NCBI RefSeq assembly: GCF_002850255.1
Contig: NZ_CP022522.1
Span: forward strand, 4,008,501 to 4,072,500
Source of the DNA: Pseudoalteromonas sp. NC201
GTDB taxonomy: Bacteria; Pseudomonadota; Gammaproteobacteria; Enterobacterales; Alteromonadaceae
Length of the DNA stretch: 64,000 bases
Reading direction: 5' to 3'
Shown here piece by piece: positions 3,919 through 64,000 of the stretch. The position numbers were made by a program, and so were the translations under genes. How positions within the stretch are numbered: the first letter of the stretch is position 1; each line of letters begins with the position of its first letter. The notes below the pieces were generated by a model. That model saw only the letters and a list, made by a program, of their open reading frames with translations. It did no database searches and had not been told where the DNA came from.

Positions 3919-4966
3919 ACCTAAAACGGTGTATTTACTCAGCCACGAACAGCCACCAATGCTTGGTGGCGCAGGCGTCGTTGCGCAAACGATATTTACG
4001 GGGTTGCGCGCATTGGGGTTGAACATCACCAAAAGCGTTGCCGCGACACACTTTGCATCCCCTTTTGCTCGCGTTGCTGGCTTCTTTTTTGCTTTTCGCG
4101 CTTTGCTATCAGATGTAATCATTATAAATGACCTGTATTACAAGAAGCTGTGGTTAACGCTTTTTCGCGGCTATTGTTGTAGCCGCTGCATCATCTATTT
4201 ACATGGTTCAGAACCTGAATTTCTTATTCAGGATGCACGCTACCGAGATACCTTTCTAAATATGTGTATCAAGGCACAAAAAGTTGTTGCTGTGTCTGAT
4301 TACATGAAGCAAAAATTATTAGACAGCATAGCTGATGAGAAAATAAAGACACTTGTTGCGCAGAATACTGTCGTAATACGCAATGGCATCGACACCGAGT
4401 GTTTTCAATTGCAGCCGGAAGTTGAGGTAGTCCGTCCTTTAACGCTCGTTACAGCTAGCCGCATTGTAAAAGAAAAAGGGTACATAGAGGTCGCTCAACA
4501 AATAGTGAAAATACGTGAGATATTGGATATACCTATTCGTTGGAATATCGTTGGTGATGGCCCATTTAGGGCTGAACTTGAGAGTTACATCAAAACGCTT
4601 GGGCTATCTGAGCAGGTTCACTTTCTCGGTCGCTTAAATCATCGCCAATTGGCCACAACATATAATCAAGCCGATATCTTTGTCTTACTCTCAAACTTGC
4701 AAGAGTCTCTTGGCTTAGTGTTTATGGAAGCAAGTAGTTGTGGTTGTTGGTCCATTGGCTACAACCGATTCGGTGCCAAAGAAGCCATTATTGCAGGGCA
4801 AACAGGCAATTTCATTGATTCGCCAGAAGCACTACCAAACGCTATCGCGAATTACTATCATGATTCGACTGTCACTAGGACACAAATCAGTGTTTGCGCA
4901 CGTAGTCACTTTTCTGCTGTTCATGCCACTACGCAACTTAAGAACACCATTTTAGGAATAGAATAA
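3908..4966 (+). CDS. Glycosyltransferase family 4 protein
   Basis: A GT-B fold glycosyltransferase of about 352 residues. Near the start is the glycine loop 'MLGGAGVVAQ', and the C-terminal half has the GT4 signatures 'ASRIVKEKGY', 'NIVGDGPFRAELE', 'HFLGRL' and the E-x7-E region 'LQESLGLVFMEASS' that binds the nucleotide-sugar donor. I place the start at the ATG overlapping the end of the pyruvyl transferase gene, after GGAG; the next codon is GTG and has better spacing, so it may be the true start. A longer TTG-initiated frame exists but has no ribosome site. Donor and acceptor are unknown; context points to assembly of a surface-polysaccharide repeat unit at the cytoplasmic membrane. Confidence 0.85.
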   Translation: MVSKPKTVYLLSHEQPPMLGGAGVVAQTIFTGLRALGLNITKSVAATHFASPFARVAGFFFAFRALLSDVIIINDLYYKKLWLTLFRGYCCSRCIIYLHGSEPEFLIQDARYRDTFLNMCIKAQKVVAVSDYMKQKLLDSIADEKIKTLVAQNTVVIRNGIDTECFQLQPEVEVVRPLTLVTASRIVKEKGYIEVAQQIVKIREILDIPIRWNIVGDGPFRAELESYIKTLGLSEQVHFLGRLNHRQLATTYNQADIFVLLSNLQESLGLVFMEASSCGCWSIGYNRFGAKEAIIAGQTGNFIDSPEALPNAIANYYHDSTVTRTQISVCARSHFSAVHATTQLKNTILGIE

Positions 4967-6079
4967 ATGAACGTAGTTTTTTACCTTGATGATTTATTTG
5001 GTGGTGGCGTGCAAAGGCGTACTATGCGCTTATTGCAAGGCATCAAAGATAACGATACAGAAAACGCGCTTAATGTTCACCTCATTGTCAATCAACCTGG
5101 AGGTGAAAATAAAGCCATGGTGCCAAAGCAAGTCACTTATCATACTTTGGGTGGCGTGTCAGGCAAACAACTTAAGAGCGAGTTAGGTGCACAGCTGATA
5201 TCTTTAAATCCAGATATTGTCGTATGTTGTATGGGTCAGCAGTTTATTCAAGCACTAAAACACAGAGCACGTTTACCTAAAGATTGCAGATGGTATGTTA
5301 TTCAAGCAGTGCCAGTAAAGCTTATTGCCTATAGCTGGCTCAAGAACAAGATAAGAACACTGGCTATCAAACTATTCTACCCACAAGCAGATAAAGTTCT
5401 TTGTGTGTCAGATGACGTACGTATCACCGTTGCAAATCTAAGCTCCGCGCTGCAAAAAAAGGCTCATACCATATATAATCCAGTGGTCTCAGAGAACCTC
5501 TTAACTCTTGCACAAGAGCATGTAGAACACCCATTCTTTGATTCCAATAACATTGTGTTAGTAGCAGCAGGTCGCCTAAATGTGCAAAAAGACTACGGTA
5601 CGATGTTGCAAGCATTCGCTTTACTAACACAACAGCATCCCGATAAGCCTTTTAAACTGCTTATTTTAGGAAATGGTGAACTTGAAGAACAATTAAAGAC
5701 CCATATTGATGCACTAGGGATCGCAGATAAAGTAGACTTGTATGGCTTTACTGACAACCCATATAAATTTATTCGTAAAGCAGATCTGTTTGTAATGTCA
5801 TCTTTGTGGGAAGGACTACCAAATGCAATGGTAGAGTCGCTAGCCATAGGTAAACCTGTCGTTTCCTGTGACTGTGTTGCAGGTCCTCGGGAAATTCTAA
5901 AAGATGGTCAATTGGGTACACTTGTACCTATGCAAAACCCACAAGCATTTGCTGACGGGATCATCGCTGAACTACAACAAAACCGAGACACTCAAGCGTT
6001 GCAAGCTCGAGGTTGGGAATTCAGCGTAAATAATGCGGCGAAAAAGTATATTGCACTCTTTAAAAATGCTGAGTTATAA
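4967..6079 (+). CDS. Glycosyltransferase family 4 protein
   Basis: A second GT4 enzyme, 370 residues. The N-terminus (FYLDDLFGGGVQRRTMRL) is the classic glycine-rich acceptor-side loop of GT4 proteins. In the C-terminal half 'VAAGRLNVQKDYGTMLQAF', 'LLILGNGELEEQLK' and 'SSLWEGLPNAMVESLAIG' form the donor-binding Rossmann domain with the E-x7-E motif. The ATG directly follows the stop codon of the preceding gene, with AGGA ahead of it. It probably adds another sugar to the same repeat unit. Sugar specificity cannot be told from sequence alone. Confidence 0.87.
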   Translation: MNVVFYLDDLFGGGVQRRTMRLLQGIKDNDTENALNVHLIVNQPGGENKAMVPKQVTYHTLGGVSGKQLKSELGAQLISLNPDIVVCCMGQQFIQALKHRARLPKDCRWYVIQAVPVKLIAYSWLKNKIRTLAIKLFYPQADKVLCVSDDVRITVANLSSALQKKAHTIYNPVVSENLLTLAQEHVEHPFFDSNNIVLVAAGRLNVQKDYGTMLQAFALLTQQHPDKPFKLLILGNGELEEQLKTHIDALGIADKVDLYGFTDNPYKFIRKADLFVMSSLWEGLPNAMVESLAIGKPVVSCDCVAGPREILKDGQLGTLVPMQNPQAFADGIIAELQQNRDTQALQARGWEFSVNNAAKKYIALFKNAEL

Positions 6080-6136
6080 ATTTTTGAGGCAATCAAAGTC
6101 ACAACCGTCTCATATCAAAAGGTAGAGATATAGATT

Positions 6137-7303
6137 ATGAAAATAACAGTAGTAGGGGCAGGATACGTAGGTATCTCAAATGCTGTGTTACTCGCTCAAC
6201 ACAATGATGTTATCGCTTTTGATGTGGATGAGCACAAAGTATCAATGCTTAACCAGCGCCAGTCACCAATTGAAGATGATTGCGTAACTCAGTTTCTACA
6301 AGAGAGGGAGCTGAGTCTAATCGCGACATCTGATAAGCAAATAGCTTATGAACATGCAGACTACGTAATTATCGCCACTCCCACGGATTACGATCCTCAA
6401 ACTAACTACTTTAATACTCAGACCGTAGAAAGCGTGATTCGCGAGGTTAAAGCCATTAACCCTACAGCAGTCATGGTGATAAAATCAACTGTCCCTGTGG
6501 GTTATACAACTCGAATTTCAGAGCAGCTAGATACTAGTAATCTTATATTTTCACCAGAGTTTTTAAGAGAGGGTAAAGCGCTTTATGACAACCTTCACCC
6601 CTCTCGCATTATTGTTGGTGAGCGCAGTGAACGAGCTGAAAAGTTTGCCCAACTATTAGCAAACGGCGCCGAAAAGCGCGATATTGCAGTACTTTTCACC
6701 GATGCAACCGAAGCCGAAGCTATCAAGCTATTTTCTAACACCTATTTAGCAATGCGTGTTGCCTATTTCAATGAGCTCGATTCTTATGCTGAAATCCATG
6801 GCCTAAACACCAGACAAATCATTGAAGGCGTGGGACTAGATCCTCGTATCGGCGCGCATTACAATAATCCATCCTTTGGTTACGGTGGCTACTGTTTACC
6901 GAAAGACACTAAGCAGCTATTAGCCAACTACAAAGATGTACCAAACAACCTTATCCGAGCCATTGTTGATGCAAATACCACAAGAAAAGACTTTATTTCT
7001 GATGCGATCTTAAGTCGAAATCCTAAAACAGTGGGGATCTATCGTTTAATCATGAAATCAGGATCTGATAACTTTCGAGCATCCTCTATTCAGGGCATCA
7101 TGAAACGCCTCAAAGCGAAAGGCATCACAGTGATAGTTTACGAACCGGTGCTAGAGGAAGCTGAGTTTTTTGGTTCAACGGTTTACCGTGATTTAGGTGA
7201 ATTCAAAGCACATAGTGATGTTGTTGTTGCCAACCGAGTTGTTGATGAGATCAGGGACGTCGCTGAAAAAATTTACACTCGGGATCTATTCGGTTCTGAT
7301 TGA
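6137..7303 (+). CDS. ugd: UDP-glucose 6-dehydrogenase
   Basis: A 388-residue NAD-dependent dehydrogenase that oxidises UDP-glucose twice to UDP-glucuronate. The N-terminal Rossmann loop '[10 protein letters not shown]', the central dimerisation helix, and the catalytic motif '[15 protein letters not shown]' with nucleophilic Cys253 are all present. The length equals that of E. coli Ugd. It sits 57 bases after the second glycosyltransferase and is followed directly by a nucleotide-sugar epimerase that would use its product, so the pair supplies acidic sugars (UDP-GlcA and probably UDP-GalA) to the polysaccharide operon. Confidence 0.95.
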
Positions 7304-7314
7304 GGAGAACAACA

Positions 7315-8319
7315 ATGAACTATTTAGTAACTGGTGCGGCTGGTTTTATCGGTAGTGCAGTGGTGAAAAAGCTAACAAACCAAGGGCACCGAGTTGTTGG
7401 CATTGATAACCTCAATGACTATTACGAAGTTAGTCTTAAAGAAGCGCGTCTTGCACGTATAGAACACCCATTATTTCAGTTTATCAAACTCGATATTAGT
7501 GATCGTGAGCAAACATTAGCGCTCTTTGAAAGCCACCAGTTTCACCGCGTTATTCATCTAGCTGCTCAAGCCGGTGTACGCTATTCGATTGAAAATCCTC
7601 ATGCTTACGCCGACTCAAACTTGGTGGGCCACTTAAACATTTTAGAAGGATGCAGAGCAACTAATGTAGGCCATCTTATCTATGCATCTTCAAGCTCTGT
7701 TTATGGTCTCAACCAGAAAGTGCCTTTTTCGACCTCAGACTCAGTAGATCATCCCATATCGCTTTACGCAGCAACTAAGAAATCTAACGAGTTAATGGCG
7801 CATAGTTACTCTCATCTGTATCAAATTCCCACCACCGGTTTACGCTTTTTTACTGTTTATGGCTCCTGGGGTCGACCGGATATGGCACCGCATATATTCA
7901 CCAAGAAGATTCTCTCAGGTGAGACTATCGACATTAACAATCATGGTGATATGTGGCGAGACTTTACCCATGTTGATGATATAGTCGAAGGGGTCGTTAG
8001 GATTGCCGATGTTTTGCCATCTGCGAATAGCGAATGGACTGTAGAGCAAGGCTCACCAGCTTCCAGCTCAGCGCCTTACGCTGTTTATAACATTGGTCAC
8101 GGACACCCAATTAACTTGATGGAATTTGTACAAGCCATTGAATCTGAATTAGGTATCGAAGCGAAAAAGAATTTCCGTGGCATGCAACCTGGAGATGTCT
8201 ATCGTACATATGCAGACACTGCTGATTTATTTGAAGCCACAGGCTATAAACCGAAAGTATCGGTGGCTGAAGGTGTAAGCGAGCTTGTGAGTTGGTTCAA
8301 GGAATACTACAAGAGGTAA
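7315..8319 (+). CDS. NAD-dependent epimerase, probable UDP-glucuronate 4-epimerase
   Basis: A short-chain dehydrogenase/epimerase of 334 residues. It shows the 'TGAAGFIGSAV' dinucleotide loop at the N-terminus, the Ser of 'ASSSSVYG', the 'YAATK' Tyr-x3-Lys catalytic pair, and the 'GLRFFTVYG' and 'WRDFTHVDD' motifs typical of UDP-glucuronate epimerases (WbnF/Cap1J type). I use the ATG preceded by AGGAG at seven bases; the frame can be extended a few codons upstream to a TTG, but that overlaps the ribosome site. It lies 11 bases after ugd, and the operon ends here with a strong hairpin. Likely converts UDP-GlcA to UDP-GalA. Confidence 0.88.
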   Translation: MNYLVTGAAGFIGSAVVKKLTNQGHRVVGIDNLNDYYEVSLKEARLARIEHPLFQFIKLDISDREQTLALFESHQFHRVIHLAAQAGVRYSIENPHAYADSNLVGHLNILEGCRATNVGHLIYASSSSVYGLNQKVPFSTSDSVDHPISLYAATKKSNELMAHSYSHLYQIPTTGLRFFTVYGSWGRPDMAPHIFTKKILSGETIDINNHGDMWRDFTHVDDIVEGVVRIADVLPSANSEWTVEQGSPASSSAPYAVYNIGHGHPINLMEFVQAIESELGIEAKKNFRGMQPGDVYRTYADTADLFEATGYKPKVSVAEGVSELVSWFKEYYKR

Positions 8320-8433
8320 CAACCCACTAGTACCGAGAATTGCTTAAGTCATTAGACCAGTTCTTTGTAAAATGCGCCTGACGTTTTTATCTGCTATGCT
8401 AAAGGACGTCTAAAGACACTTTTTTCAGTTTCC

Positions 8434-8460
8434 AATGCCCGATAACCATTATCGGGCATT
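8434..8460 (+). terminator. Terminator hairpin of the polysaccharide operon
   Basis: AATGCCCGATAA and TTATCGGGCATT are perfect 12-bp arms around a 3-base loop, followed by TCGTAT. It lies between convergent genes, so it may serve both strands. Confidence 0.75.
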
Positions 8461-8500
8461 TCGTATCAATAACTTATATTCGCGTGATAACTTATCTGGA

Positions 8501-9040
8501 TCATTTAAACGCTTTAAAAGCATCATCCAGTGGAGTATGTGCGATATGATTCACGTAGTTACTCATCACTTTTTGACTTAGTGCTAAGATGATTTCCAGC
8601 AAATTTTGTTTAGTATAACCTGCTGCAAAAAACGCTTTCGTTTGTGCATCACTCAGTTTGCCACGCTCACGCAGCATTTCAAGTGTAGTGGCACGCAGCA
8701 CTTCTAGTTTCTCATCGCCCAGCGGTGCTTGCTCACGCAGTGCTTTGACCAATTCATCACTTACTTTCATTGATTTTGCGATAGCAGAATGAGCCGGTAC
8801 ACAGTAGTGACATTCATGTTCTACATTAATCGCTTGCCACACCACAGTTTTTTCATCGTTATTGAACGAGCTATTTAAAAAAGCCTCATGTAACACTTGA
8901 TAGCCATGCAGATGCTCTGGTGATTCCGCCATTACACCATGAAGGTTCGGAATACGTCCAAACGCTTGCTGGGACTTCTCAAGTAATGGTTTACCTTTTT
9001 GCGGTGCAGATTCTACGGTATGGATTGTAAAGTCAGTCAT
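8501..9040 (-). CDS. Carboxymuconolactone decarboxylase family (AhpD-like) protein
   Basis: A 179-residue protein of the CMD/AhpD superfamily. The signature is Glu76-Cys-His-Tyr-Cys80 with His84 ('ECHYCVPAHSA'), the C-x-x-C redox motif of alkylhydroperoxidase-type members; the rest is helical. Such proteins reduce peroxides through a dithiol or act as uncharacterised peroxidatic enzymes. I chose the ATG preceded by GAGGAG; a frame extension of seven codons upstream would swallow that site. It is a single gene with two palindromes in its upstream region, so it is probably under its own repressor, perhaps responding to organic peroxide or electrophile stress (inference). Confidence 0.85.
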   Translation of the reverse strand: MTDFTIHTVESAPQKGKPLLEKSQQAFGRIPNLHGVMAESPEHLHGYQVLHEAFLNSSFNNDEKTVVWQAINVEHECHYCVPAHSAIAKSMKVSDELVKALREQAPLGDEKLEVLRATTLEMLRERGKLSDAQTKAFFAAGYTKQNLLEIILALSQKVMSNYVNHIAHTPLDDAFKAFK

Positions 9041-9244: not shown

Positions 9245-10120
9245 TCAAAAGTAAATTTTGTTCTCAGCGTAGTCGATAACTAGCTTATCGTCGTTGAAAT
9301 TACTTAAACCCAGCAGGATAAACGGCTCATCTTTATATCCAAGCACCTCAAACACAGGCATATCCGATAAGTGACTTTCGGTATTGATGATTTCCTTGTC
9401 ACCTAAGCTAAAACGCAGTGATTCTATGGCCACCTTTTTGGTCGCTAGGTCGTTTAACCCTCGGCTGATGTCTTCTTCGCCCAGCGTTAATGTTAGTTTA
9501 TTGGCCAGGTGTGAGTTGATGTAGTTGGTTGGAGCGCCGGTATCAAGCACGGCGTCCACCTCTTCGCCATTAAAACTTGCAGTTAGCTTGATGAAATTGT
9601 TATCTATTTTAAAACTTTCACTCTCCAAGCCCTGTGTCACGCTACTTGGGCAAGCCCCTTGATACAAACTCAGCTCATTATTTTTAAAATCAAACACATT
9701 ACAATATTGCGACATGTATCCATGCCCCAAAATTCCAGGCAAGATGCCTTCCACATCTAAGCGGGTCATATCTTTAAATACATAAGGAAGCGACTCTGCT
9801 GCTAAGTGGCCGACGCTGGTGTGGTCTATCGTTGCCAATACTAGCTCTGAGCTGCCACTTGCGCCTTGCACGTCCATTTTGCTTAGCTTGTCTTCAGGCA
9901 AGGCAAGTGCTGCTTTCAGATTAACCGGTAAAATACCAACATTCGCAGCACTGTCTAAAATCATAGGATGGGTAACCGTATGGTTAAGCGTTGCCATCAC
10001 ATAGGCATGACCTTTCTCGGTGTACTTCATCGGTAAAGTGAGCGATTGTGGCGCGGTAGACGCGGTGATCCCACAACCAACGGTGGTACATGCTAATGCT
10101 GATAAAATAATTGCTCTCAT
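9245..10120 (-). CDS. Exported retropepsin/pepsin-like aspartic protease
   Basis: A 291-residue protein with an N-terminal signal sequence ending near Cys16 (TTVGC), a weak lipobox, so it may be a lipoprotein. It has two aspartic-protease half-domains: the first around Asp56 ('MILDSAANVGILPV', with D-S-A in place of D-T-G) and the second with canonical Asp193-Thr-Gly ('AVLDTGAPTNYI'). Hydrophobic-hydrophobic-Gly patterns follow each. Two lobes on one chain resemble a bacterial pepsin-like arrangement. Single gene, with no operon partner; it ends about 200 bases upstream of the AhpD-like gene. Substrate unknown. The altered first-lobe motif leaves activity open. Confidence 0.75.
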   Translation of the reverse strand: MRAIILSALACTTVGCGITASTAPQSLTLPMKYTEKGHAYVMATLNHTVTHPMILDSAANVGILPVNLKAALALPEDKLSKMDVQGASGSSELVLATIDHTSVGHLAAESLPYVFKDMTRLDVEGILPGILGHGYMSQYCNVFDFKNNELSLYQGACPSSVTQGLESESFKIDNNFIKLTASFNGEEVDAVLDTGAPTNYINSHLANKLTLTLGEEDISRGLNDLATKKVAIESLRFSLGDKEIINTESHLSDMPVFEVLGYKDEPFILLGLSNFNDDKLVIDYAENKIYF

Positions 10121-10186
10121 AATCTTGCTCTCAAACTGTTGATGTTTTTGTTGAGCTAACTATGCCGAGCAATTGTCAAGCAATTA

Positions 10187-11566
10187 TCAAGTTAGTTGAG
10201 AAAATCTGAGCGAAAAGCTCGCCCCTTGATTTTCAGTACTGGTCGCGGTCAATGTCGCGCCCATCAGCTCGGCAAGTTGACGGCAAATTGGCAAGCCGAG
10301 TCCTAAACTGGATGTATCGTGGCGCGACCCCTGCGCGCGGTAAAAGCGCTCAAACACCTGATCGAGTTGATTAGGCGACATACCTTGGCCACAGTCAGCA
10401 ACCGTAATCACCAGTTCATTATCTTGATAACTGAGCTTTAACGTCACAACGCCACCATCAGCGCCATATTTAAAGGCATTATCTAATAAGTTCACCACTA
10501 TCTGTCTGACTCTTCCGGCATCAAGCGTCACGCTCACACCTTCTTGAATATCTGCGTTCAATTTCACGCCTCGCGCTTCGGCCTGTGCTTGGTAACGCAC
10601 TAAGGTCGATGTTAACAGCTCAGAGAGATTTACTCGTGTTGATGACAAGGTCAGCTGCTTTGACTCGGTTAATGACAACAAACACAGGTCGTCGATAATA
10701 CGGTTAACGTTGTGAAGGTCTTGGGTTATCACCGCTAACTGAGCCTTATCCATTGGCACTATACCGTCTTCCATCGCCTCCAAGCGCGAACGAATGCCGT
10801 TAAGTGGTGTTCTAAGTTCATGAGATAAGTCGGAATTCATTTGTTTATACTGCTGATGCAAACCTTGTAGCCAAGCCGCAAGATTATTAAAACTATTGAT
10901 GATTTCACCTACTTCATCATGGCGTTTTAGCGCTAAGCGGGTGTCTAACTCGCCCGACTCTATCGCCTTGAAGCTACGTTTGAGCTGTTTAAGTGGCGAC
11001 AAAAAGTACCACGACCCCAACCAAGCAAGTAATGCAGCAATAATCGATAAGATGACCAAAGTAAGCATAAAATCATCCAGCATAGCTTGCTGCAGCGCTT
11101 CCTTTTCAAACGACCTATCTAGCAATACCTCAGGTAACCAAAACAACTCACCCTGTGGTGATAACACATATTGCGCCTCATTAAATTGCACCACAAACGC
11201 CGCGACACCGGGGTGATGGATAGAAAATTGATGACCGGATTTGACCTGCTCATAGTCTATGGTGAGATCGGGGTTGAGGATCTTTACATCCGCTGTTGAG
11301 TTAGCATCTCGCCAAATAAATAGCTGCTCAGGAAAGGTTGATGCTAAAAACGTTAACGTCGCTTCTGGGCTCGCAAAGGTTTTACCAGTCAATGCTTCTT
11401 CCACTAAGTCATCATCAAGCAATGAATGACCAAACGTTACCGCACTTTGCTTATTAAATGCTAAAAAAGTGCGCTCGGCTGAGTTTTTAGATAGTTGATA
11501 AAAGCTTCCGAGTAGCGCAAAGGTACAAAGCGCCACGAGTAAGGTAAATTTGGTTTTTAGCTTCAT
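10187..11566 (-). CDS. Sensor histidine kinase, BaeS-like
   Basis: A 459-residue membrane kinase. A transmembrane helix lies at about residues 8-25, a periplasmic sensor region of roughly 140 residues follows, then a second transmembrane helix near 168-190, a HAMP domain (about 190-240), the HisKA domain with phospho-acceptor His249 ('LSHELRTPLNG') and an HATPase domain with 'NLLDNAFKYG', 'VADCGQGM' and 'LGLGLPICRQL'. The stretch after the H-box ('RLEAMEDGIVPM') resembles envelope-stress kinase BaeS, but target genes are not evident here. The start codon overlaps the stop of the response-regulator gene by four bases (ATGA). Confidence 0.88.
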   Translation of the reverse strand: MKLKTKFTLLVALCTFALLGSFYQLSKNSAERTFLAFNKQSAVTFGHSLLDDDLVEEALTGKTFASPEATLTFLASTFPEQLFIWRDANSTADVKILNPDLTIDYEQVKSGHQFSIHHPGVAAFVVQFNEAQYVLSPQGELFWLPEVLLDRSFEKEALQQAMLDDFMLTLVILSIIAALLAWLGSWYFLSPLKQLKRSFKAIESGELDTRLALKRHDEVGEIINSFNNLAAWLQGLHQQYKQMNSDLSHELRTPLNGIRSRLEAMEDGIVPMDKAQLAVITQDLHNVNRIIDDLCLLSLTESKQLTLSSTRVNLSELLTSTLVRYQAQAEARGVKLNADIQEGVSVTLDAGRVRQIVVNLLDNAFKYGADGGVVTLKLSYQDNELVITVADCGQGMSPNQLDQVFERFYRAQGSRHDTSSLGLGLPICRQLAELMGATLTATSTENQGASFSLRFSQLT

Positions 11567-12258
11567 GAAGACACCTTACGCGCGATAAATTGATAGCCTT
11601 GCCCGTAACGAGTGGCGATAAACTTGGGCTCAGCCTTACTGTCACCTAGTTTTTTACGCAAGTTAGCCAAATGAGTATCGACTGCCCGATCCGTAATAGG
11701 CGCATCACTTCCCCATACTTGTTCAATTAATTGCGCGCGGCTAAATACTTGTTGCGGCTGCTTGGCCATGGTCAGTAATAACTCGAACTCCACCGCCGTT
11801 AACGCTGGTGTTTGTTGTGTTACCGTTACGGATTTGCTCTCAAGATTGATACTTAAGCCATCAAACAACAAAGCGGCACTCTGCTGACCACGATAGCTAC
11901 GTTTACATAGTGCTTTTGCTCGTGAGATCACTTCTCGTGGGCTGTAAGGCTTGCACACATAATCGTCCGCACCTAGCTCAAACCCCTCAAGACGGTCGGT
12001 TTCAGACACTTTGGCGGTCACCATAATGGTAGGAATGTTGCGTGCAACGGCTTCTTTAAGTAACTCACGGCCATCACCACCGGGTAGCATGACATCTAAA
12101 ATAGCGAGTTGAAATGTTAGGTTTTGTAGGGCTCGGTGGGCATCTGGGGCGTTATCGAAATGGACAACCTGCATATCCGCTTGTGCCAGATATAAATTTA
12201 ATATCTCAGCACTACTTGGGTCATCTTCTACATATAAAACAGTATATTGGTCAGACAT
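11563..12258 (-). CDS. OmpR-family response regulator
   Basis: A 231-residue two-domain regulator. The receiver has the acidic cluster at residues 11-13, phospho-acceptor Asp55 ('LDVMLPGGDG'), 'VTAK' and 'KPYSPRE'. The winged-helix domain follows from about residue 130 ('LTAVEFELLLTMAKQ', 'VWGSDAPITDRAVDTHLANL'). It is the first gene of an operon with the overlapping kinase, so both are translated together. The upstream 475 bases are shared with the divergent NrtR-like gene. Regulon unknown; the architecture fits an envelope or efflux stress response. Confidence 0.9.
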   Translation of the reverse strand: MSDQYTVLYVEDDPSSAEILNLYLAQADMQVVHFDNAPDAHRALQNLTFQLAILDVMLPGGDGRELLKEAVARNIPTIMVTAKVSETDRLEGFELGADDYVCKPYSPREVISRAKALCKRSYRGQQSAALLFDGLSINLESKSVTVTQQTPALTAVEFELLLTMAKQPQQVFSRAQLIEQVWGSDAPITDRAVDTHLANLRKKLGDSKAEPKFIATRYGQGYQFIARKVSS

Positions 12259-12574
12259 TGTTGAGATTAATTTAACGAGTTAATGCTGAGATTCTTAAAG
12301 CCGCTTTATAACCACAGCACCTCCGCATGACGAGGGATATTTGTAGCCACGTTGCAGGGTGATCTTTCAGCTAATAATTTAAGTGACTTTACTATGCCAC
12401 AGCCTTACTCGTTAAGGAACGTCATACTTACCTCTACTGATACCGCTTTTAACTATCGCATAATAAAACAACATCCGCTTCCATCCCTTCCAGCTACTAT
12501 AACCATTTAAAATAAAAGGACTTTTACATTACTTACAAGCTCAAAATAGCAACCTTTGCAACTCAAAATTGATA

Positions 12575-12589
12575 GTGTCATAAAGACAC
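12575..12589. promoter_or_regulatory. Palindrome A of a TGTC-N5-GACA pair
   Basis: GTGTCATAAAGACAC has 5-bp arms around ATAAA. The same TGTC-NNAAA-GACA pattern recurs 130 bases downstream, directly before the NrtR-like gene. It lies in the 475-base divergent region between the two-component system and that gene, which holds no coding frame that I can support. Confidence 0.5.
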
Positions 12590-12705
12590 AAACTCACAAC
12601 AACACAAATTTTGATCAAACGCCAAGATAGAGTCACAGGGACAATATACTCCGCTTATTAACATTGAAACCTTTGTTTTGCTTTAACCTAAACAATCGTT
12701 TATTG

Positions 12706-12718
12706 TGTCCAAAAGACA
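12706..12718. promoter_or_regulatory. Palindrome B of a TGTC-N5-GACA pair, candidate autoregulatory operator
   Basis: TGTCCAAAAGACA lies 16 bases before the ATG of the NrtR-like regulator, where a bound repressor would block initiation. It shares arms and an A-rich spacer with the upstream copy. That the NrtR-like protein binds it is inference. Confidence 0.5.
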
Positions 12719-12733
12719 TTAACTAAAAAATCA

Positions 12734-13435
12734 ATGAGCTCAGAACACAATTTATCCCAGTTTCACCCGCCTCTTTTTTCAGTAGACAGTGTGTTATTTA
12801 CAATTTGGCAAGGTAGCTTAAAAGTCCTCCTCACCAAACGCCCCCATGCGCCGTTCAAAGGCCGCTGGGGATTACCTGGAGGGTTTGTTGATGTTGAGCT
12901 GGATGACAACACGGATATGAGCGCGCTGCGTAAGATCAAAGAGAAAACCAGTGTTGCCCCACAATACCTTGAACAACTTCAGGCGTTTTCTGGGATCAAC
13001 CGTGATCCGCGAGGCTTTAGTGTCACCTTGGTTTATTACGCATTGATTTCACCTCAGCAAGTGGCAACCCAAATTGACTCGGTAGATGATGTGAGATGGG
13101 TGGATCTTAGCGAGATCCCAGATCTTGCTGTGGCTTTTGATCATAAGCATATTATTGAAAAGGCCAAGGCAAGGCTGCAGCAAAAGGCGTTATATTCCAT
13201 GATCCCGGTTTATTGTTTGGCAGATCAATTTACCATTGGACAACTCAAAACCGCCATCGAAGCCATTATCGCCAAACCCATTCAGCGCAAGAGCTTGGTA
13301 AGACGAATTGAAGCCTCAAACATGTTTGAAGCACTGGATGAAAAGGTCAAGTCAGGCGGACGTTTAGCACAGCTCTATAAACTAAAGCCTGATGTCGATA
13401 TCGTGCATTTTGAGCGCAATCTGAGCTTAGGATAA
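12734..13435 (+). CDS. NrtR-like Nudix-domain transcriptional regulator
   Basis: A 233-residue protein with an N-terminal Nudix-fold domain (about 10-150) and a C-terminal winged helix (about 155-225, 'RKSLVRRIEASNMFEALDE'). This is the layout of NrtR, which senses ADP-ribose and controls NAD-related or sugar genes. The Nudix box is degenerate: after 'WGLPGGFVDVE' the REUXEE segment reads RKIKEKT, so the metal-binding glutamates are largely lost and it is probably a ligand sensor rather than a hydrolase. No NAD-salvage gene is next to it; two similar palindromes upstream are likely operators. There is no obvious Shine-Dalgarno before the ATG, which may indicate a leaderless or weakly translated message. 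Confidence 0.82.
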   Translation: MSSEHNLSQFHPPLFSVDSVLFTIWQGSLKVLLTKRPHAPFKGRWGLPGGFVDVELDDNTDMSALRKIKEKTSVAPQYLEQLQAFSGINRDPRGFSVTLVYYALISPQQVATQIDSVDDVRWVDLSEIPDLAVAFDHKHIIEKAKARLQQKALYSMIPVYCLADQFTIGQLKTAIEAIIAKPIQRKSLVRRIEASNMFEALDEKVKSGGRLAQLYKLKPDVDIVHFERNLSLG

Positions 13436-59854: not shown

Positions 59855-60032
59855 ATTGTTGCCAAATATCCCATCACATAATCATTCGAAAGCAAAATGT
59901 TGAAAAAGTAAGCAATATGTTTTAGCTTGGCAATTGTGTTTCTTTTTTGTTCGAAAAAATCGAAACAAATTAGTTCGCGTTAATCCACTTTTGTAGCTCA
60001 ATCTGAGCATCTAGTTTAGAAGGAATACTGAA

Positions 60033-60206
60033 ATGAAATTATCGTTAAACAAAAAGAAAATCAAAGCCCTATCTGCTGACAAACAAACAGTACCTGCAGT
60101 AATGACTCCACAAATTGCAGGCGGCGCGCTTCGCTTCAGCCAAGACAGGCTAACGCATTGTGTTGCCAATACGTGTGGTCGCCACACTTGCCCTGATATT
60201 TACTAA
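60033..60206 (+). CDS. Lanthipeptide-type precursor peptide (GG leader)
   Basis: A 57-residue peptide. Leader: 'MKLSLNKKKIKALSADKQTV', with the Leu/Asn/Lys-rich start ('LNKKKIKAL') found in class I lanthipeptide leaders, ending in Gly30-Gly31 ('TPQIAGG'), a double-glycine site for a C39-type protease-transporter. Core (residues 32-57): four dehydratable residues (Ser36, Thr41, Thr47, Thr52) and three Cys (43, 48, 53), with Thr-His-Cys, Thr-Cys and Thr-Cys in sequence and an aromatic end (PDIY). AGGA is nine bases before the ATG and a hairpin follows. A LanB-type dehydratase gene lies 2.4 kb away on the other strand. Precursor identity is strong inference; the product is unknown. Confidence 0.8.
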   Translation: MKLSLNKKKIKALSADKQTVPAVMTPQIAGGALRFSQDRLTHCVANTCGRHTCPDIY

Positions 60207-60228
60207 TCAAGAGTAAATATCACAGTTC

Positions 60229-60248
60229 AGTGCCTCATTGGAGGCACT
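60229..60248 (+). terminator. Hairpin after the precursor peptide gene
   Basis: AGTGCCTC and GAGGCACT are perfect 8-bp arms with a 4-base loop, followed by TTAAGG. It lies between the peptide gene and the convergent next gene. Confidence 0.7.
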
Positions 60249-60255
60249 TTAAGGC

Positions 60256-60774
60256 TTACTTAAATTTAACCTCTTTCTCACTTTTCGTGTAAACACGCGA
60301 CTCAGGTTGAGTCCACTCGCCGTTTTTCAAATATTGTGTTGACACCGTAAATTGACCACTCTCAAATTTACTGGTTGATTTCACCTTTGTAATGCCATCT
60401 TTGTTATTAATGACATCTTCGTATGCCACAAACTCGGTCTGGCTCAGGACTTCCATCGTTCCTTGGGTGTAAAACCCTGCCGTCGTAAAATAGTAAAACA
60501 CTAGACTGTTTTTACTTTTATCCCAGAAAATTAATGACTCTCCGCCGTACATGCCATCGTTGATTGAATGTAAGGTACGAACAGCCGTGCCATTTAAAGC
60601 CCGCTCCCAGTGACTCACATCCTGCATCTTTGGTTTACCTGTAGCTACATCAAAGTCCGATTGCCAAGTACCGAGATAAGGTGTAAACACCGAGAGTTCT
60701 TCATTTAATTTTTCATTAGCCCAAGATAGCGTGCTGAATACCGCCAATATGGCGAGCCCGAATTTTTTCATCAT
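60256..60774 (-). CDS. Exported DUF1579-like beta-barrel protein
   Basis: A 172-residue protein with a signal peptide (MMKKFGLAILAVFSTLSWA, cleavage before NEK). The mature part is an up-and-down beta fold: 'LGTWQSDFDVATGKPK', 'SHWERALNGTAVRTLH', 'LIFWDKSKNSLVFYYFTTAG' and later strands, like the lipocalin-type DUF1579 domain; the family call is by pattern only. GGAA precedes the first ATG. It is convergent with the lanthipeptide precursor and sits between it and the flavoprotein, but a link to peptide maturation is not shown. Confidence 0.65.
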   Translation of the reverse strand: MMKKFGLAILAVFSTLSWANEKLNEELSVFTPYLGTWQSDFDVATGKPKMQDVSHWERALNGTAVRTLHSINDGMYGGESLIFWDKSKNSLVFYYFTTAGFYTQGTMEVLSQTEFVAYEDVINNKDGITKVKSTSKFESGQFTVSTQYLKNGEWTQPESRVYTKSEKEVKFK

Positions 60775-61010
60775 TTTTATTTCCGTTGATTGTGTCTCAG
60801 TCAGTATAAATCTTCATGCACAGGTTGCGTACTTAAGGTGAACCAGTCATCCCACCATTGGTAAAAAAACATTGCAAATACACAATTAATACACATTTTA
60901 AAACAACAATTACACAACAAATTAATATCATAACTGCAATAGGGAAAGCGGGGAACCTTACCCTGTCAGAGTAGTTGTTGCAGCACCAACACCAACAAGG
61001 AACAACGAAC

Positions 61011-62576
61011 ATGCTTGATTATCTTATTATTGGCGCAGGCCCTGCGGGGGTCCAAACTGCTTATCATCTAAAACAAAATGACTTGTCCTACCTTATGTTG
61101 GAGTCAGGCCAGCGCGCAGGATGTTTTTTCGAAACATTCCCAATTCACCGAAAACTGATTTCAATTAATAAAGTATATACTGGTTCGACAAACCCTGAGT
61201 TCAACTTACGACACGACTGGAACTCAATTTTAACTGATGACTACAGCCTAAACTTTTCAAGCTTTGACCAAAACTTTTTCCCAAGTGCAGATAATTTAGT
61301 CAAATATCTCAATCATTATGTCGACCAAAATCAGCTAAATGTTGCTTATAACCAACATGTTAAGTCCATCGAAAAAATTGCTGGGCACTTTGTAGTAACT
61401 ACAACAAGTAATGATCAATATGAAGCGTCTCGCGTTATCGTTAGTACAGGCGTCCCTAAACCTTATATTCCAAAGATCGAGGGAATTGAGTTAGTGACGC
61501 AATACTCTGACTTAAATATTGATTTGGCCCCGTTTGCAAACAAGCGCGTACTTATTCTCGGTAAAGGAAACTCCGCTTTCGAAACGGCTGATCACCTTAT
61601 TCCTGCTACAAGTCTAATCCATGTTTGTAGTCCAAATCCTTTAGATATGGCATGGAAGACGCACTATGTTGGCGACCTACGTGCCGTAAACAATAATATT
61701 TTAGATACTTATCAGCTTAAATCTCAAAATGCTATCTTAGACGCCGACATTAAGTTAATTGAGAAACGAGACGACCGCTTTATCGTGCACTTTAGTTATG
61801 CCCACGCAAATGGAGAGCAAGAAACCATAGAGTATGACGAGATCATTTGTTGTACAGGGTTTGCCATGGATAGCAGCGTTTTTGCCGATAGCGCAAAACC
61901 CGATTTAATGATTGAGGGCCGCTTCCCGTCTCTAGATTGCAGCTTTGAATCCATTAATGTGAAAGGTCTTTACTTTGCAGGCACGCTCACTCAATCCACC
62001 AAATATCGTAAGTCAACTTCAGGCTTTATTCATGGTTTTAGATACAATAGCCGCGCTTTAGTCGAGATGTTAAAGCAAAAACATCACGATACCGCGCTTG
62101 CATGCGATCAACACCTTGGCACACCAGAAGCAATTAGCAGCGCAATCCTCAGCCGTATCAATGAGACTAGCGCGCTATGGCAGCAACATGGCTTTATGGT
62201 GGATGCCGTCACAGTATCTGAGACCGGTATGGCCCAGTATTACAAGCACCTACCGAGTCCATACCTCCATGCTCACCTAGGTGATCACTATCATTTGCAG
62301 ATAGCATTAGATTTTGGTGCGCCAATTGAAGGTGACCCGTTCAACCAGGTTCGGGTGCATAAAGACAACGCGACTGACGCGGAATTAAGTAAATTCTTAC
62401 ACCCCATCATTGAACTTTGCTATCAAGGTGAGGTGATAGAAACTCATCATATTATTGAGGACTTAGAAGCGGATTGGACTGACATAGAAGCGCACGTTAA
62501 ACCACTTCAACAATTCATTGAGCGAGTACTGCCACAGCTTGCTGGTGAAAAAATGCAAAATAAAGCATCAGCATAG
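61011..62576 (+). CDS. ERFAD/FOXRED2-like FAD-dependent oxidoreductase
   Basis: A 521-residue flavoprotein. FAD loop 'LIIGAGPAGVQTAYHL' (8-13), a region 'FPIHRKLISINKVYTGS', 'NPEFNLRHDWNSIL' (45-73) that closely matches the pattern of eukaryotic FOXRED2 (ERFAD), 'STGVPKPYIP', the NAD(P) loop 'LILGKGNSAFETADHL' (184-191), 'IICCTGFAMD' and 'GLYFAGTL', then a long C-terminal tail (about 365-521). I chose the ATG that begins MLDYLIIG, with AAGGA upstream; a 12-codon extension lacks support. Convergent with the LanB gene across a shared terminator. It may oxidise or reduce a thiol or amine; possible tailoring of the lanthipeptide is inference. Confidence 0.8.
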   Translation: MLDYLIIGAGPAGVQTAYHLKQNDLSYLMLESGQRAGCFFETFPIHRKLISINKVYTGSTNPEFNLRHDWNSILTDDYSLNFSSFDQNFFPSADNLVKYLNHYVDQNQLNVAYNQHVKSIEKIAGHFVVTTTSNDQYEASRVIVSTGVPKPYIPKIEGIELVTQYSDLNIDLAPFANKRVLILGKGNSAFETADHLIPATSLIHVCSPNPLDMAWKTHYVGDLRAVNNNILDTYQLKSQNAILDADIKLIEKRDDRFIVHFSYAHANGEQETIEYDEIICCTGFAMDSSVFADSAKPDLMIEGRFPSLDCSFESINVKGLYFAGTLTQSTKYRKSTSGFIHGFRYNSRALVEMLKQKHHDTALACDQHLGTPEAISSAILSRINETSALWQQHGFMVDAVTVSETGMAQYYKHLPSPYLHAHLGDHYHLQIALDFGAPIEGDPFNQVRVHKDNATDAELSKFLHPIIELCYQGEVIETHHIIEDLEADWTDIEAHVKPLQQFIERVLPQLAGEKMQNKASA

Positions 62577-62587
62577 CTCATAAATGA

Positions 62588-62615
62588 AAAAGGTTGGCAA
62601 TCAAGCCAACCTTTT
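62588..62615. terminator. Bidirectional terminator between flavoprotein and LanB genes
   Basis: AAAAGGTTGGC and GCCAACCTTTT are perfect 11-bp arms with a 6-base loop and A/T-rich ends in both directions, between two convergent stop codons. Confidence 0.88.
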
Positions 62616-62621
62616 CATACT

Positions 62622-64000
62622 CTACAAGGCTTTAGATTCAGAAAAGTATTTTCGTCTCAACATATCATGAATAACAAATTCTTGCTCTCGACCATAGGCT
62701 TTAAACATACGGTTGTTATGCATGTGTAAAAGAGAGCCCAGCAATGATTGTGTACTCAGGTTAAGCGAACCTGACTTTTCTAACGTCAGAATTTCCTTCA
62801 CCACTGGCTCAGCCTGCATTTGCCAACCTTCTAACAGTGCAAGTATAGCTTGCTGAGCCTCATCACATTGCGCTAAGCTCGCAATATTAAGCTTGGTAAA
62901 GTCATCATCGAGCTGAGTTTGGTGATCGCGATAACGATTGCCGAGCTGCTTTCTCAGCGCACTACTCTCATTAAATTCTTTACCAAACCCTGCGCGCAAT
63001 GAAGAGATTAGCGATAGCTTTTGTTCAGCATCATAGCTAAATAACGTTAGCAATCGATTAGTAAAAGCTAACGCGACGCGCCAACGGACATCTTCACCAA
63101 ACTCTGCGACAAGCTGGCAACTTTTTGCAATAAGCTCACTGTCAAACATAAATAAGCTTTCAATCAAAGCCATAGACTGCGGACCGCCGTAACGCTCAAC
63201 CTCTCGCTCATAAGTCATTAATTCAACTTTATGTAGCTGAGAGCTCTCTATCATAGGTGACAACAGCTGATTAAGTTTCGGCAATAGCTCTCCACAAAGT
63301 ACTTCTGGCTTGCCTTGGAAGCGTAAGCGTAGATGCCAGTCAGGATCGCCATAACGAATAAAGAACCACTTATCGAATAATGCGCTATTTTCCTCAATAA
63401 GCGGCAATAACTGCTCATAAAGCAGCTGCTCAACAATAGTATTACCTGAATATATTTTTAAGCTAAGCCACTCGGAACCAGCACTAAAACGCCGAGAGAT
63501 TGGTGTAGCCGTAATATTTTCTAACGGCTTTTCAATGTAGTGCGTGTGAGAAGCTGCACTCTCATTAAGTAAAGGAACAATGATTTCATTAGTATAATGA
63601 CGACCCTGTGTATCTGTTACTCGTGGTGCAAATTGAGATGCCAACACTTCACTGAGCTCAACCGTATGACGGCCTTTGGTTTCCATCAACAAAACTTCTA
63701 CCATCGCACTTTGGCTCAAACTCAAAGTTAGCACATTATCACCTGCAGCAAAGCTCACCCAATCGTCTAACAAATACTTATCTTTGAGTTGTTGAAGCTT
63801 ATTTTCTTCGATGCTCTGATTAACCAGCAACGCCTCAAGCTCTTTGCGCTCAATACGCCATGTTTTCTCATGCAGAATCAGGTTATCTAACATGATACGT
63901 GGTACATAGGTTGCGTTTCTTAAGCTCGAGGGCAGTGAAAACTTGGGCGTTTCACTTTCTTGATGTTGCAACATACAAAGGAATTTATAAGCACTCAAGC
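62622..64000 (-). CDS. Lanthipeptide dehydratase LanB, C-terminal part (5' end outside window)
   Basis: 459 residues are visible and the frame is open at the right edge. The first part matches the end of a lantibiotic dehydratase glutamylation domain ('WRIERKELEALLVNQS', 'LLDDWVSFAAGDNVLTLSLS'). The second is the SpaB_C/thiopeptide-type elimination domain: 'WLSLKIYSGNTIVEQLLYEQ', 'WFFIRYGDPDWHLRLRFQGK', 'ELMTYEREVERYGGPQSM' and 'FTNRLLTLFSYDAEQ'. LanB adds glutamyl from tRNA-Glu to Ser/Thr of a precursor and then eliminates it to dehydro residues. A full LanB is about 900-1050 residues, so roughly half is missing. LanC cyclase and transporter would lie beyond the window. Confidence 0.88.
   Translation of the reverse strand, partial: LSAYKFLCMLQHQESETPKFSLPSSLRNATYVPRIMLDNLILHEKTWRIERKELEALLVNQSIEENKLQQLKDKYLLDDWVSFAAGDNVLTLSLSQSAMVEVLLMETKGRHTVELSEVLASQFAPRVTDTQGRHYTNEIIVPLLNESAASHTHYIEKPLENITATPISRRFSAGSEWLSLKIYSGNTIVEQLLYEQLLPLIEENSALFDKWFFIRYGDPDWHLRLRFQGKPEVLCGELLPKLNQLLSPMIESSQLHKVELMTYEREVERYGGPQSMALIESLFMFDSELIAKSCQLVAEFGEDVRWRVALAFTNRLLTLFSYDAEQKLSLISSLRAGFGKEFNESSALRKQLGNRYRDHQTQLDDDFTKLNIASLAQCDEAQQAILALLEGWQMQAEPVVKEILTLEKSGSLNLSTQSLLGSLLHMHNNRMFKAYGREQEFVIHDMLRRKYFSESKAL

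What the first reader, a model, noticed from the sequence alone, without database searches (positions are those of the whole stretch)
60033..64000. Candidate new class I lanthipeptide locus with a three-Cys core
Seen: a 57-residue peptide with a Gly-Gly leader and a 26-residue core holding Ser36, Thr41, Thr47, Thr52 and Cys43, Cys48, Cys53, in the same neighbourhood as a gene encoding a LanB glutamylation/elimination C-terminus. Known: LanB enzymes of class I dehydrate Ser/Thr and LanC adds Cys to form lanthionine; double-Gly leaders are cut by C39 transporters. Inference: three thioether rings are possible, with Thr-Cys neighbours that would give unusually small or overlapping rings. I do not recognise the core as a described lanthipeptide. 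LanC and the exporter should lie just right of the window.
Basis: partly seen in the sequence, partly recalled or inferred. Interest (0 to 1): 0.85.

Follow-up and report, generated by a model that had tools for sequence, protein, structure and literature searches.

The report
Scattered peptide precursors, one modifying enzyme
The small peptide gene is real and belongs to a near-known lanthipeptide cluster, but it is only one of about twenty similar genes strewn over this marine bacterium's genome that probably all feed one pair of ring-making enzymes, an arrangement best known from a different enzyme class in cyanobacteria.

Summary
In detail: 60033-60206 encodes a 57-aa peptide (31-aa leader, 26-aa core, three Cys), 2.4 kb from the 3' part of a class I LanB gene. 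Past the window edge lie LanC, a second precursor, a C39 ABC exporter and HlyD. The genome is a Pseudoalteromonas; its LanB is 92-93% identical to that of P. flavipulchra, the species that yielded pseudorosins A-C, and the peptide's core is identical there. The local locus is therefore very probably of pseudorosin type, not new. In 99 genomes of the genus, the 47 with LanB are exactly the 47 with such peptides: 1 to 65 per genome, median 23. Twenty-six LanB-less genomes have a C39 domain but no such peptide. Orthologous cores are under purifying selection and keep every Cys; paralogous cores are unrelated. This looks like prochlorosin-style substrate fan-out run by class I enzymes. My searches found no report of that, but the key paper could not be read.

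The parts
60020..60024 (+). Shine-Dalgarno-like AAGGA of the precursor
   Evidence: Read directly. AAGGA or AGGAA precedes 18 of the 20 precursors of this genome against 1.5% of 20,000 random stretches.
60033..60125 (+). Leader peptide (31 aa) with LxLxKx5L motif and TPQIAGG end
   Evidence: Shared with 17 other peptides of the genome in alignment A1; motif as described for Bacteroidetes class I leaders in PMC7268733 (passage).
60126..60203 (+). Core peptide ALRFSQDRLTHCVANTCGRHTCPDIY; candidate ring residues S36, T41, T47, T52 with C43, C48, C53
   Evidence: all seven residues kept in seven of ten homologues aligned.
62622..64000 (-). 3' part of lanB (full gene, 1044 aa, runs past the window edge: L010 4623-7757)
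   Evidence: Lant_dehydr_N 433.7 bits and Lant_dehydr_C 211.5 bits on the full protein; conserved Arg/His aligned with NisB.
60256..60774 (-). 172-aa putative secreted protein of unknown function between precursor and lanB; neighbour, role unproven
   Evidence: Homologue near lanB in 28 of 38 loci; no Pfam hit above its cut-off.
60975..62576 (+). FAD/NAD(P) oxidoreductase; probably not part of the system
   Evidence: Pyr_redox_3; seen at only 2 of 38 related lanB loci.

Best explanation
The peptide is one substrate of a class I lanthipeptide system with one LanB dehydratase, one LanC cyclase and a C39 peptidase/ABC exporter with its HlyD partner, encoded together beside a glmU-like gene. Besides the two precursors at this cluster, the genome carries 17 or 18 more, singly or in pairs at other sites, nearly all with their own ribosome-binding site. 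They share a leader (M-K-L-x-L-x-K-K-x4-L ... T-P-x-I-A-G-G). Inferred mechanism: LanB binds the leader through its LxLxKx5L motif and dehydrates core Ser/Thr using Glu-tRNA, LanC closes thioether rings with core Cys, and the C39 exporter cuts after Gly-Gly and secretes the product. Because recognition sits in the leader, cores can differ freely, so a new peptide costs one small gene. Shown here: the genes, the shared leader, the enzyme counts, the co-occurrence, the selection. Inferred: that each dispersed peptide is modified by this LanB/LanC, that rings form, export, and the biological role (most likely a varied arsenal of antimicrobial or signalling peptides).
For: One LanB and one LanC in G000; 19 leader matches at E<=0.001, 20 at E<=10. 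LanB and precursors occur in the same 47 of 99 genus genomes and in none of the other 52. 26 of those 52 have a C39 domain (12 at E 2e-30 or better, 14 weaker), yet none has a precursor, so the peptides follow LanB, not the exporter alone. Counts 1-64 per LanB+ genome (at most 64 candidates scored per genome), 65 in the two-contig genome G061; median 23. 20 orthologue pairs: dN/dS 0.08 leader, 0.13 core; Cys kept 79 of 79, Ser/Thr 94 of 100, other core residues 401 of 431. Paralogue leaders 45.9% identical, cores 16.3% against 14.9% shuffled; cores 12.5% Cys, leaders 0.2%. 9 of 35 related clusters show no precursor in the fetched flanks, among them P. rubra S2676, which has 44 in its genome. 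LanB, LanC and C39 domains complete, key residues present.
Against: No product, transcript or mass is available here. Co-occurrence could partly reflect common descent of clades with and without the system; the genomes are not independent. In close relatives other core residues are kept almost as well as Ser/Thr, so only the 79 of 79 Cys stands out, and modestly. Some leader-bearing peptides have no Cys (3 of 23 in G056, 5 of the 36 read in G061) and cannot make lanthionine. A second C39 exporter exists in the genome. Position -7 is Thr in 18 of 20, where LahT recognises a hydrophobic residue (PMC10885120, passage). No curated NCBIfam leader family covers the peptides.
Confidence: 0.78

Rival explanations
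1. LanB/LanC modify only the local precursors; the dispersed peptides are disulfide-bonded double-glycine bacteriocins that merely share leader and exporter.
For: A C39 exporter is present; some cores have even Cys numbers; some leader peptides lack Cys.
Against: Precursors are absent from all 52 LanB-less genomes of the sample, 26 of which have a C39 domain, though 14 of these only a weakly matching one. Cys counts per core are mixed odd and even: 2 twice, 3 seven times, 4 five times, 5 four times, 7 and 8 once each in G000. Nine of 35 LanB clusters show no local precursor in the fetched flanks.
Confidence: 0.13
2. The dispersed copies are decaying relics or selfish duplicates without product.
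For: Copy number varies widely between species; presence at one site differs among close relatives; one G056 copy looks truncated.
Against: dN/dS 0.08 and 0.13 with all Cys kept; 18 of 20 have an AAGGA/AGGAA ribosome site against 1.5% background; 5 of 20 cores are recognisable in the distant G061 with z 9.9-25.7.
Confidence: 0.05
3. Ordinary stand-alone class I lanthipeptide cluster (pseudorosin type), the genome-wide matches being chance leader look-alikes.
For: The local cluster matches P. flavipulchra at 92-93% in LanB.
Against: The same profile finds no match in 52 genus genomes without LanB, and only 4 of 295 order genomes match, two of them from this genus (at most 21 candidates scored per genome).
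Confidence: 0.02

Closest known systems
Pseudorosins A-C / PsfB (Pseudoalteromonas flavipulchra S16)
   Same: Genus and class I LanB; P. flavipulchra NCIMB 2033 has LanB 92-93% identical to the window's and an identical core.
   Different: The S16 paper (pmid 37162177) is not held, so its precursors, structures and any remark on distant genes are unknown to me; I saw one passage citing it and reference entries.
PciA/PciC, Pseudoalteromonas citrea DSM 8771
   Same: Class I lanthipeptide of the genus, modified in E. coli (PMC9993889: outline, passages and section 8 seen).
   Different: Shown there as one cluster; no mention of distant precursors in what I read.
Prochlorosins / ProcM and SyncM
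   Same: One enzyme, many precursors with similar leaders and diverse cores, many prochlorosin genes lying far from the enzyme gene (PMC7268733 and PMC12328550, passages).
   Different: Class II LanM and Nif11-type leaders in cyanobacteria; here class I LanB plus LanC and an LxLxKx5L leader.
Bacteroidetes class I lanthipeptides with LxLxKx5L and GG leaders
   Same: Same leader motif and C39 processing (PMC7268733, passage).
   Different: Mined there within seven genes of LanC; here most precursors are far away, in a gammaproteobacterium.

Membership tests
Class I lanthipeptide | Full-length LanB with glutamylation and elimination domains | tested here: met
   PF04738 at residues 42-689 and PF14028 at 763-1037 of 1044 aa; Arg and His positions aligned with NisB, the His in a weak second stretch (residue roles recalled).
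Class I lanthipeptide | Separate LanC with zinc ligands | tested here: met
   PF05147 139 bits; WCYG and CHG aligned to the solved LanC-like 8byk (ligand role recalled).
Class I lanthipeptide | Precursor with leader and Ser/Thr/Cys core | tested here: met
Class I lanthipeptide | (Methyl)lanthionine in the product | not testable with these tools
   Needs mass spectrometry.
Double-glycine/C39 processed peptide | GG or GA cleavage site and C39 peptidase-ABC exporter | tested here: met
   GG or GA at the expected place in 19 of 20 (the cut itself was placed at GG/GA by the script); PF03412 at residues 21-148 of the transporter. Cleavage itself not testable.
Prochlorosin (class II, ProcM-type) | Many dispersed precursors for one enzyme, conserved leader, variable core | tested here: met
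   (gene content; enzyme action on them not tested).
Prochlorosin (class II, ProcM-type) | LanM synthetase | tested here: not met
   The only LanC-like domain of the genome is in a 401-aa stand-alone LanC beside LanB.
Prochlorosin (class II, ProcM-type) | Nif11-type leader | tested here: not met
   No Pfam family for the window peptide at E<=0.1; the other precursors were not scanned against Pfam.
NCBIfam NF038153 lant_leader_L1a | Score above curated cut-off 22 | tested here: not met
   12.2 bits, E 0.16; no NF038153 hit among the 18 members at E<=0.1.
Pseudorosin system | Same precursor and enzymes as P. flavipulchra S16 | tested here: inconclusive

The most novel reading that the evidence does not exclude
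About half of the sampled Pseudoalteromonas genomes run a class I counterpart of the prochlorosin system: one leader-guided LanB/LanC pair modifies up to 65 mostly unlinked peptide genes per cell, each core kept by selection within its lineage while genes come and go at fixed intergenic sites, so that the genome itself is the combinatorial library and the 'gene cluster' may hold no precursor at all.
Probability: 0.7. Interest if true: 0.84.

Novelty: new variant of a known kind. Interest (0 to 1): 0.7.

Why it matters
Large natural substrate fan-out is known to me as a hallmark of class II LanM enzymes. A tRNA-dependent class I pair that accepts dozens of unrelated natural cores would give a large natural data set for how LanB/LanC choose residues and ring patterns, and a gammaproteobacterial platform for leader-guided peptide libraries. 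It also means that mining limited to the neighbourhood of LanC misses most products: the 47 LanB-positive genomes of the sample yielded about 1,250 precursor matches (sums), in the four genomes I mapped (G000, G028, G056, G061) most lie far from LanB, and nearly all homologues for which a source gives a name are 'hypothetical' or 'uncharacterized'.

Tried and rejected
Chance ORF: rejected, homologues with identical core. FAD oxidoreductase 60975-62576 as a tailoring enzyme: rejected for now, seen at only 2 of 38 related loci. Peptides tracking the C39 exporter rather than LanB: not supported. Shared promoter: upstream sequences were only looked at by eye for the 20 genes of G000; beyond the ribosome site I saw no common motif and made no statistical search. 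Literature: the ten searches gave no listing whose title or abstract start reports dispersed precursors for a class I LanB; 30 of 58 papers were listed, and most listed papers were not opened. Structure prediction and fold search were not used. No class-wide survey was made: the order sample scored at most 21 candidates per genome, so weak holders may be missed.

A reading I dropped on re-checking: G077's precursor on its contig C1 lies about 1.2 kb beyond the far end of the probed stretch, not at the 1.72-Mb site, so G077 says nothing on that site. Rows dropped: three of 23 syntenic pairs were left out (the G028 copy of the window peptide, for which the script found no ATG start; a truncated-looking G056 copy; the only G061 pair). 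Of 65 G061 matches I read stretches holding 36 leader hits. For named counts I gave 10 of the 38 loci.

Full report
What is there. The window peptide 60033-60206 (+) reads MKLSLNKKKIKALSADKQTVPAVMTPQIAGG | ALRFSQDRLTHCVANTCGRHTCPDIY. The window lies at C1:4008501-4072500 of a 5.38-Mb, two-contig genome. I fetched the right-hand continuation (L010). Read from there: lanB 4623-7757 (-), lanC 7761-8966 (-), a second precursor on the opposite strand between lanC and the exporter (genome 4075699-4075887, +), a C39 peptidase/ABC exporter 9424-11568 (-), HlyD 11587-12831 (-), then a GlmU-like gene (named from recall of its sequence). Pfam agrees for enzymes and exporter.

Enzymes look active. LanB has both Lant_dehydr domains in full. 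Against NisB the alignment keeps the two Arg of the RxxxRxTPFG stretch, the two Arg of H(I/L)RLR, the Arg of EVERYGG and, in a weak second stretch, the His of H(V/M)HNNR; their catalytic roles are recalled. LanC keeps WCYG and CHG; their role as zinc ligands is recalled.

Which organism. The closest named LanB are in Pseudoalteromonas: 93% in P. flavipulchra NCIMB 2033 and strain HM-SA03 (92-93%), 87% strain S2755, 82% P. piscicida, 81% P. peptidolytica, about 60-64% for most others, 52-57% in P. denitrificans and two Colwellia MAGs. In P. flavipulchra the two local precursors flank the same cluster and the window core is identical (L084). Pseudorosins A-C, class I lanthipeptides, were obtained from P. 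flavipulchra S16 (PMC12819058, passage only); PsfB is named in the title of the original paper (reference entry), which is not held. So the local locus is most likely the counterpart of a described one. Whether this very peptide is a pseudorosin I could not check.

The wider set. Searching the genome with the peptide gave 19 places at E<=1; a profile of 18 of them gave 20 at E<=10, 19 of these at E<=0.001. One of the 19 places (C1:1726046) did not return. With the leader alone I count 20 peptides in the fetched stretches, at 17 sites if genes less than 10 kb apart are one site: about 0.12, 0.23, 0.26, 0.52, 0.54, 1.10, 1.12, 1.14, 1.16 (two), 1.26 (two), 1.39, 1.72, 2.61, 3.78, 4.07-4.08 (two) and 4.10 Mb of C1 and 0.28 Mb of C2. 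In a mechanical ORF scan 18 of 20 stand tail to tail with the next larger ORF downstream. An AAGGA or AGGAA stands before 18 of 20 (background 1.5% of 20,000 random stretches). The 4.10-Mb member is weak (E 0.024) and may belong to a separate system. There is one LanB, one LanC and two C39 domains.

Genus test. In 99 genomes of the genus, LanB was found in 47 and the precursor profile in 47; I compared the handle lists and they are the same 47. Under random placement of 47 among 99 that has a probability of about 10^-28.7, an overstatement because relatives are not independent. C39 domains occur in 73 of 99: all 47 plus 26 others, and none of these 26 has a precursor; 12 of the 26 match at E 2e-30 or better, the other 14 only at 2e-16 to 2e-8. 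Precursor counts range from 1 to 64 (at most 64 candidates scored per genome), median 23; 37 of 47 genomes have ten or more, 18 thirty or more. With 136 candidates scored, the two-contig genome G061 has 65. Named genomes (10 chosen, all LanB-positive): P. flavipulchra 21, P. piscicida 8, P. peptidolytica 11, P. luteoviolacea DSM 6061 36, P. rubra S2676 44, P. phenolica S3663 23, P. denitrificans 44, P. amylolytica 9, two Colwellia MAGs 3 each. Outside the genus the profile is rare: 4 of 295 order genomes, two of them of this genus (at most 21 candidates scored each). Thalassomonas proteins also match.

Cluster without precursor. Among 35 related loci where LanB, LanC and exporter were all seen, nine show no leader match (E<=1e-4) in the fetched flanks (up to 10 kb a side, less where contigs end). 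P. rubra S2676 (L096, full flanks) is one, with 44 matches in its genome.

Selection and turnover. Twenty syntenic pairs between this genome and G028 or G056 (several genes used twice): leader dN 0.015, dS 0.182; core dN 0.031, dS 0.245; 79 of 79 Cys kept, 94 of 100 Ser/Thr, 401 of 431 other residues. Within the genome the cores are 16.3% identical on average against 14.9% after shuffling, the leaders 45.9%. Five of 20 cores still find a clear partner among the 36 read from distant G061 (z 9.9 to 25.7; the other 15 have z 2.7 or less). For the peptide at 1.72 Mb, between an adenylate-kinase-like and a CmoB-like methyltransferase gene (both names recalled), six relatives were probed: G014 has the gene; G028, G056 and G091 have both flanks and no leader match between them; G048 has a different precursor and a TonB-type receptor gene (named from recall) there; G077 has its two flanks on different contigs and is uninformative. 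So at this one site genes come and go, while orthologues that stay are conserved.

The window core itself. THC-VANTCG-xHTC is kept in close relatives and in one P. phenolica copy; S36, T41, C43, T47, C48, T52 and C53 are all kept in seven of ten homologues aligned (P0016, P0018, P0045, P0048, P0050, the L085 copy, which equals P0050, and one P. phenolica copy, which has an insertion before them); the three others differ. Adjacent Thr-Cys pairs cannot plausibly close on each other, so rings such as S36-C43, T41-C48, T47-C53 are more likely (inference).

How it compares. Prochlorosins show the same logic with a class II enzyme: many genes are located distantly from their LanM and were missed by neighbourhood mining (PMC7268733, passage); SyncM serves 79 precursors (PMC12328550, passage). 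In the passages I saw of that review (12 of 14 places) no such class I set is mentioned, and the word Pseudoalteromonas does not occur in it. The leader motif LxLxKx5L with GG was described for class I peptides of Bacteroidetes; here a strict form (L or F at the second hydrophobic place) is in 15 of 20 and a looser hydrophobic form in 19 of 20. It works like prochlorosin biosynthesis; by membership it is class I and not a prochlorosin.

Verdict. Observation confirmed; interpretation partly supported; the local locus is near-known; the genome-wide, genus-wide dispersed substrate set for one class I enzyme pair is, as far as my ten paper searches and the six papers opened in part show, undescribed, with the unread pseudorosin paper as the main risk.

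Noticed in passing
L166 (G000:C1:4100834-4106977): A second C39 ABC/HlyD exporter pair, a weak leader-bearing peptide and a ToxR-like regulator gene (HlyD and regulator named from recall of the sequence) lie about 25 kb past the lanthipeptide cluster; maybe a separate bacteriocin system.
   Followed up: partly
L088 301, L103 418, L097 1657-2206, L092 2340-2767, L120 2455-2857; L161 and L178: Peptides with the same kind of leader but no Cys, often in tandem, several with Thr/Ser stretches such as NTDTVTQ or SSDTSV; they cannot form lanthionine and might be dehydrated only, or only exported.
   Followed up: no
60256-60774: A putative secreted 172-aa protein of unknown function lies near lanB in 28 of 38 related loci; it could be a mere neighbour or an immunity or accessory protein.
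   Followed up: partly
G048:C1:2105500-2112600 (L200): At the site where this genome has a precursor, a relative carries a TonB-type receptor gene and a different precursor, pointing to a turnover hot spot.
   Followed up: partly
P0013, P0078: A few homologues are named 'Class I lanthipeptide' or 'Lantibiotic' by a source, while nearly all other named ones are 'hypothetical' or 'uncharacterized'.
   Followed up: no
G023:C8:136479-137261 and G041:C10:139718-140575: Two genomes also have a short stand-alone protein with the LanB C-terminal domain (open frames of 284 and 308 aa).
   Followed up: no
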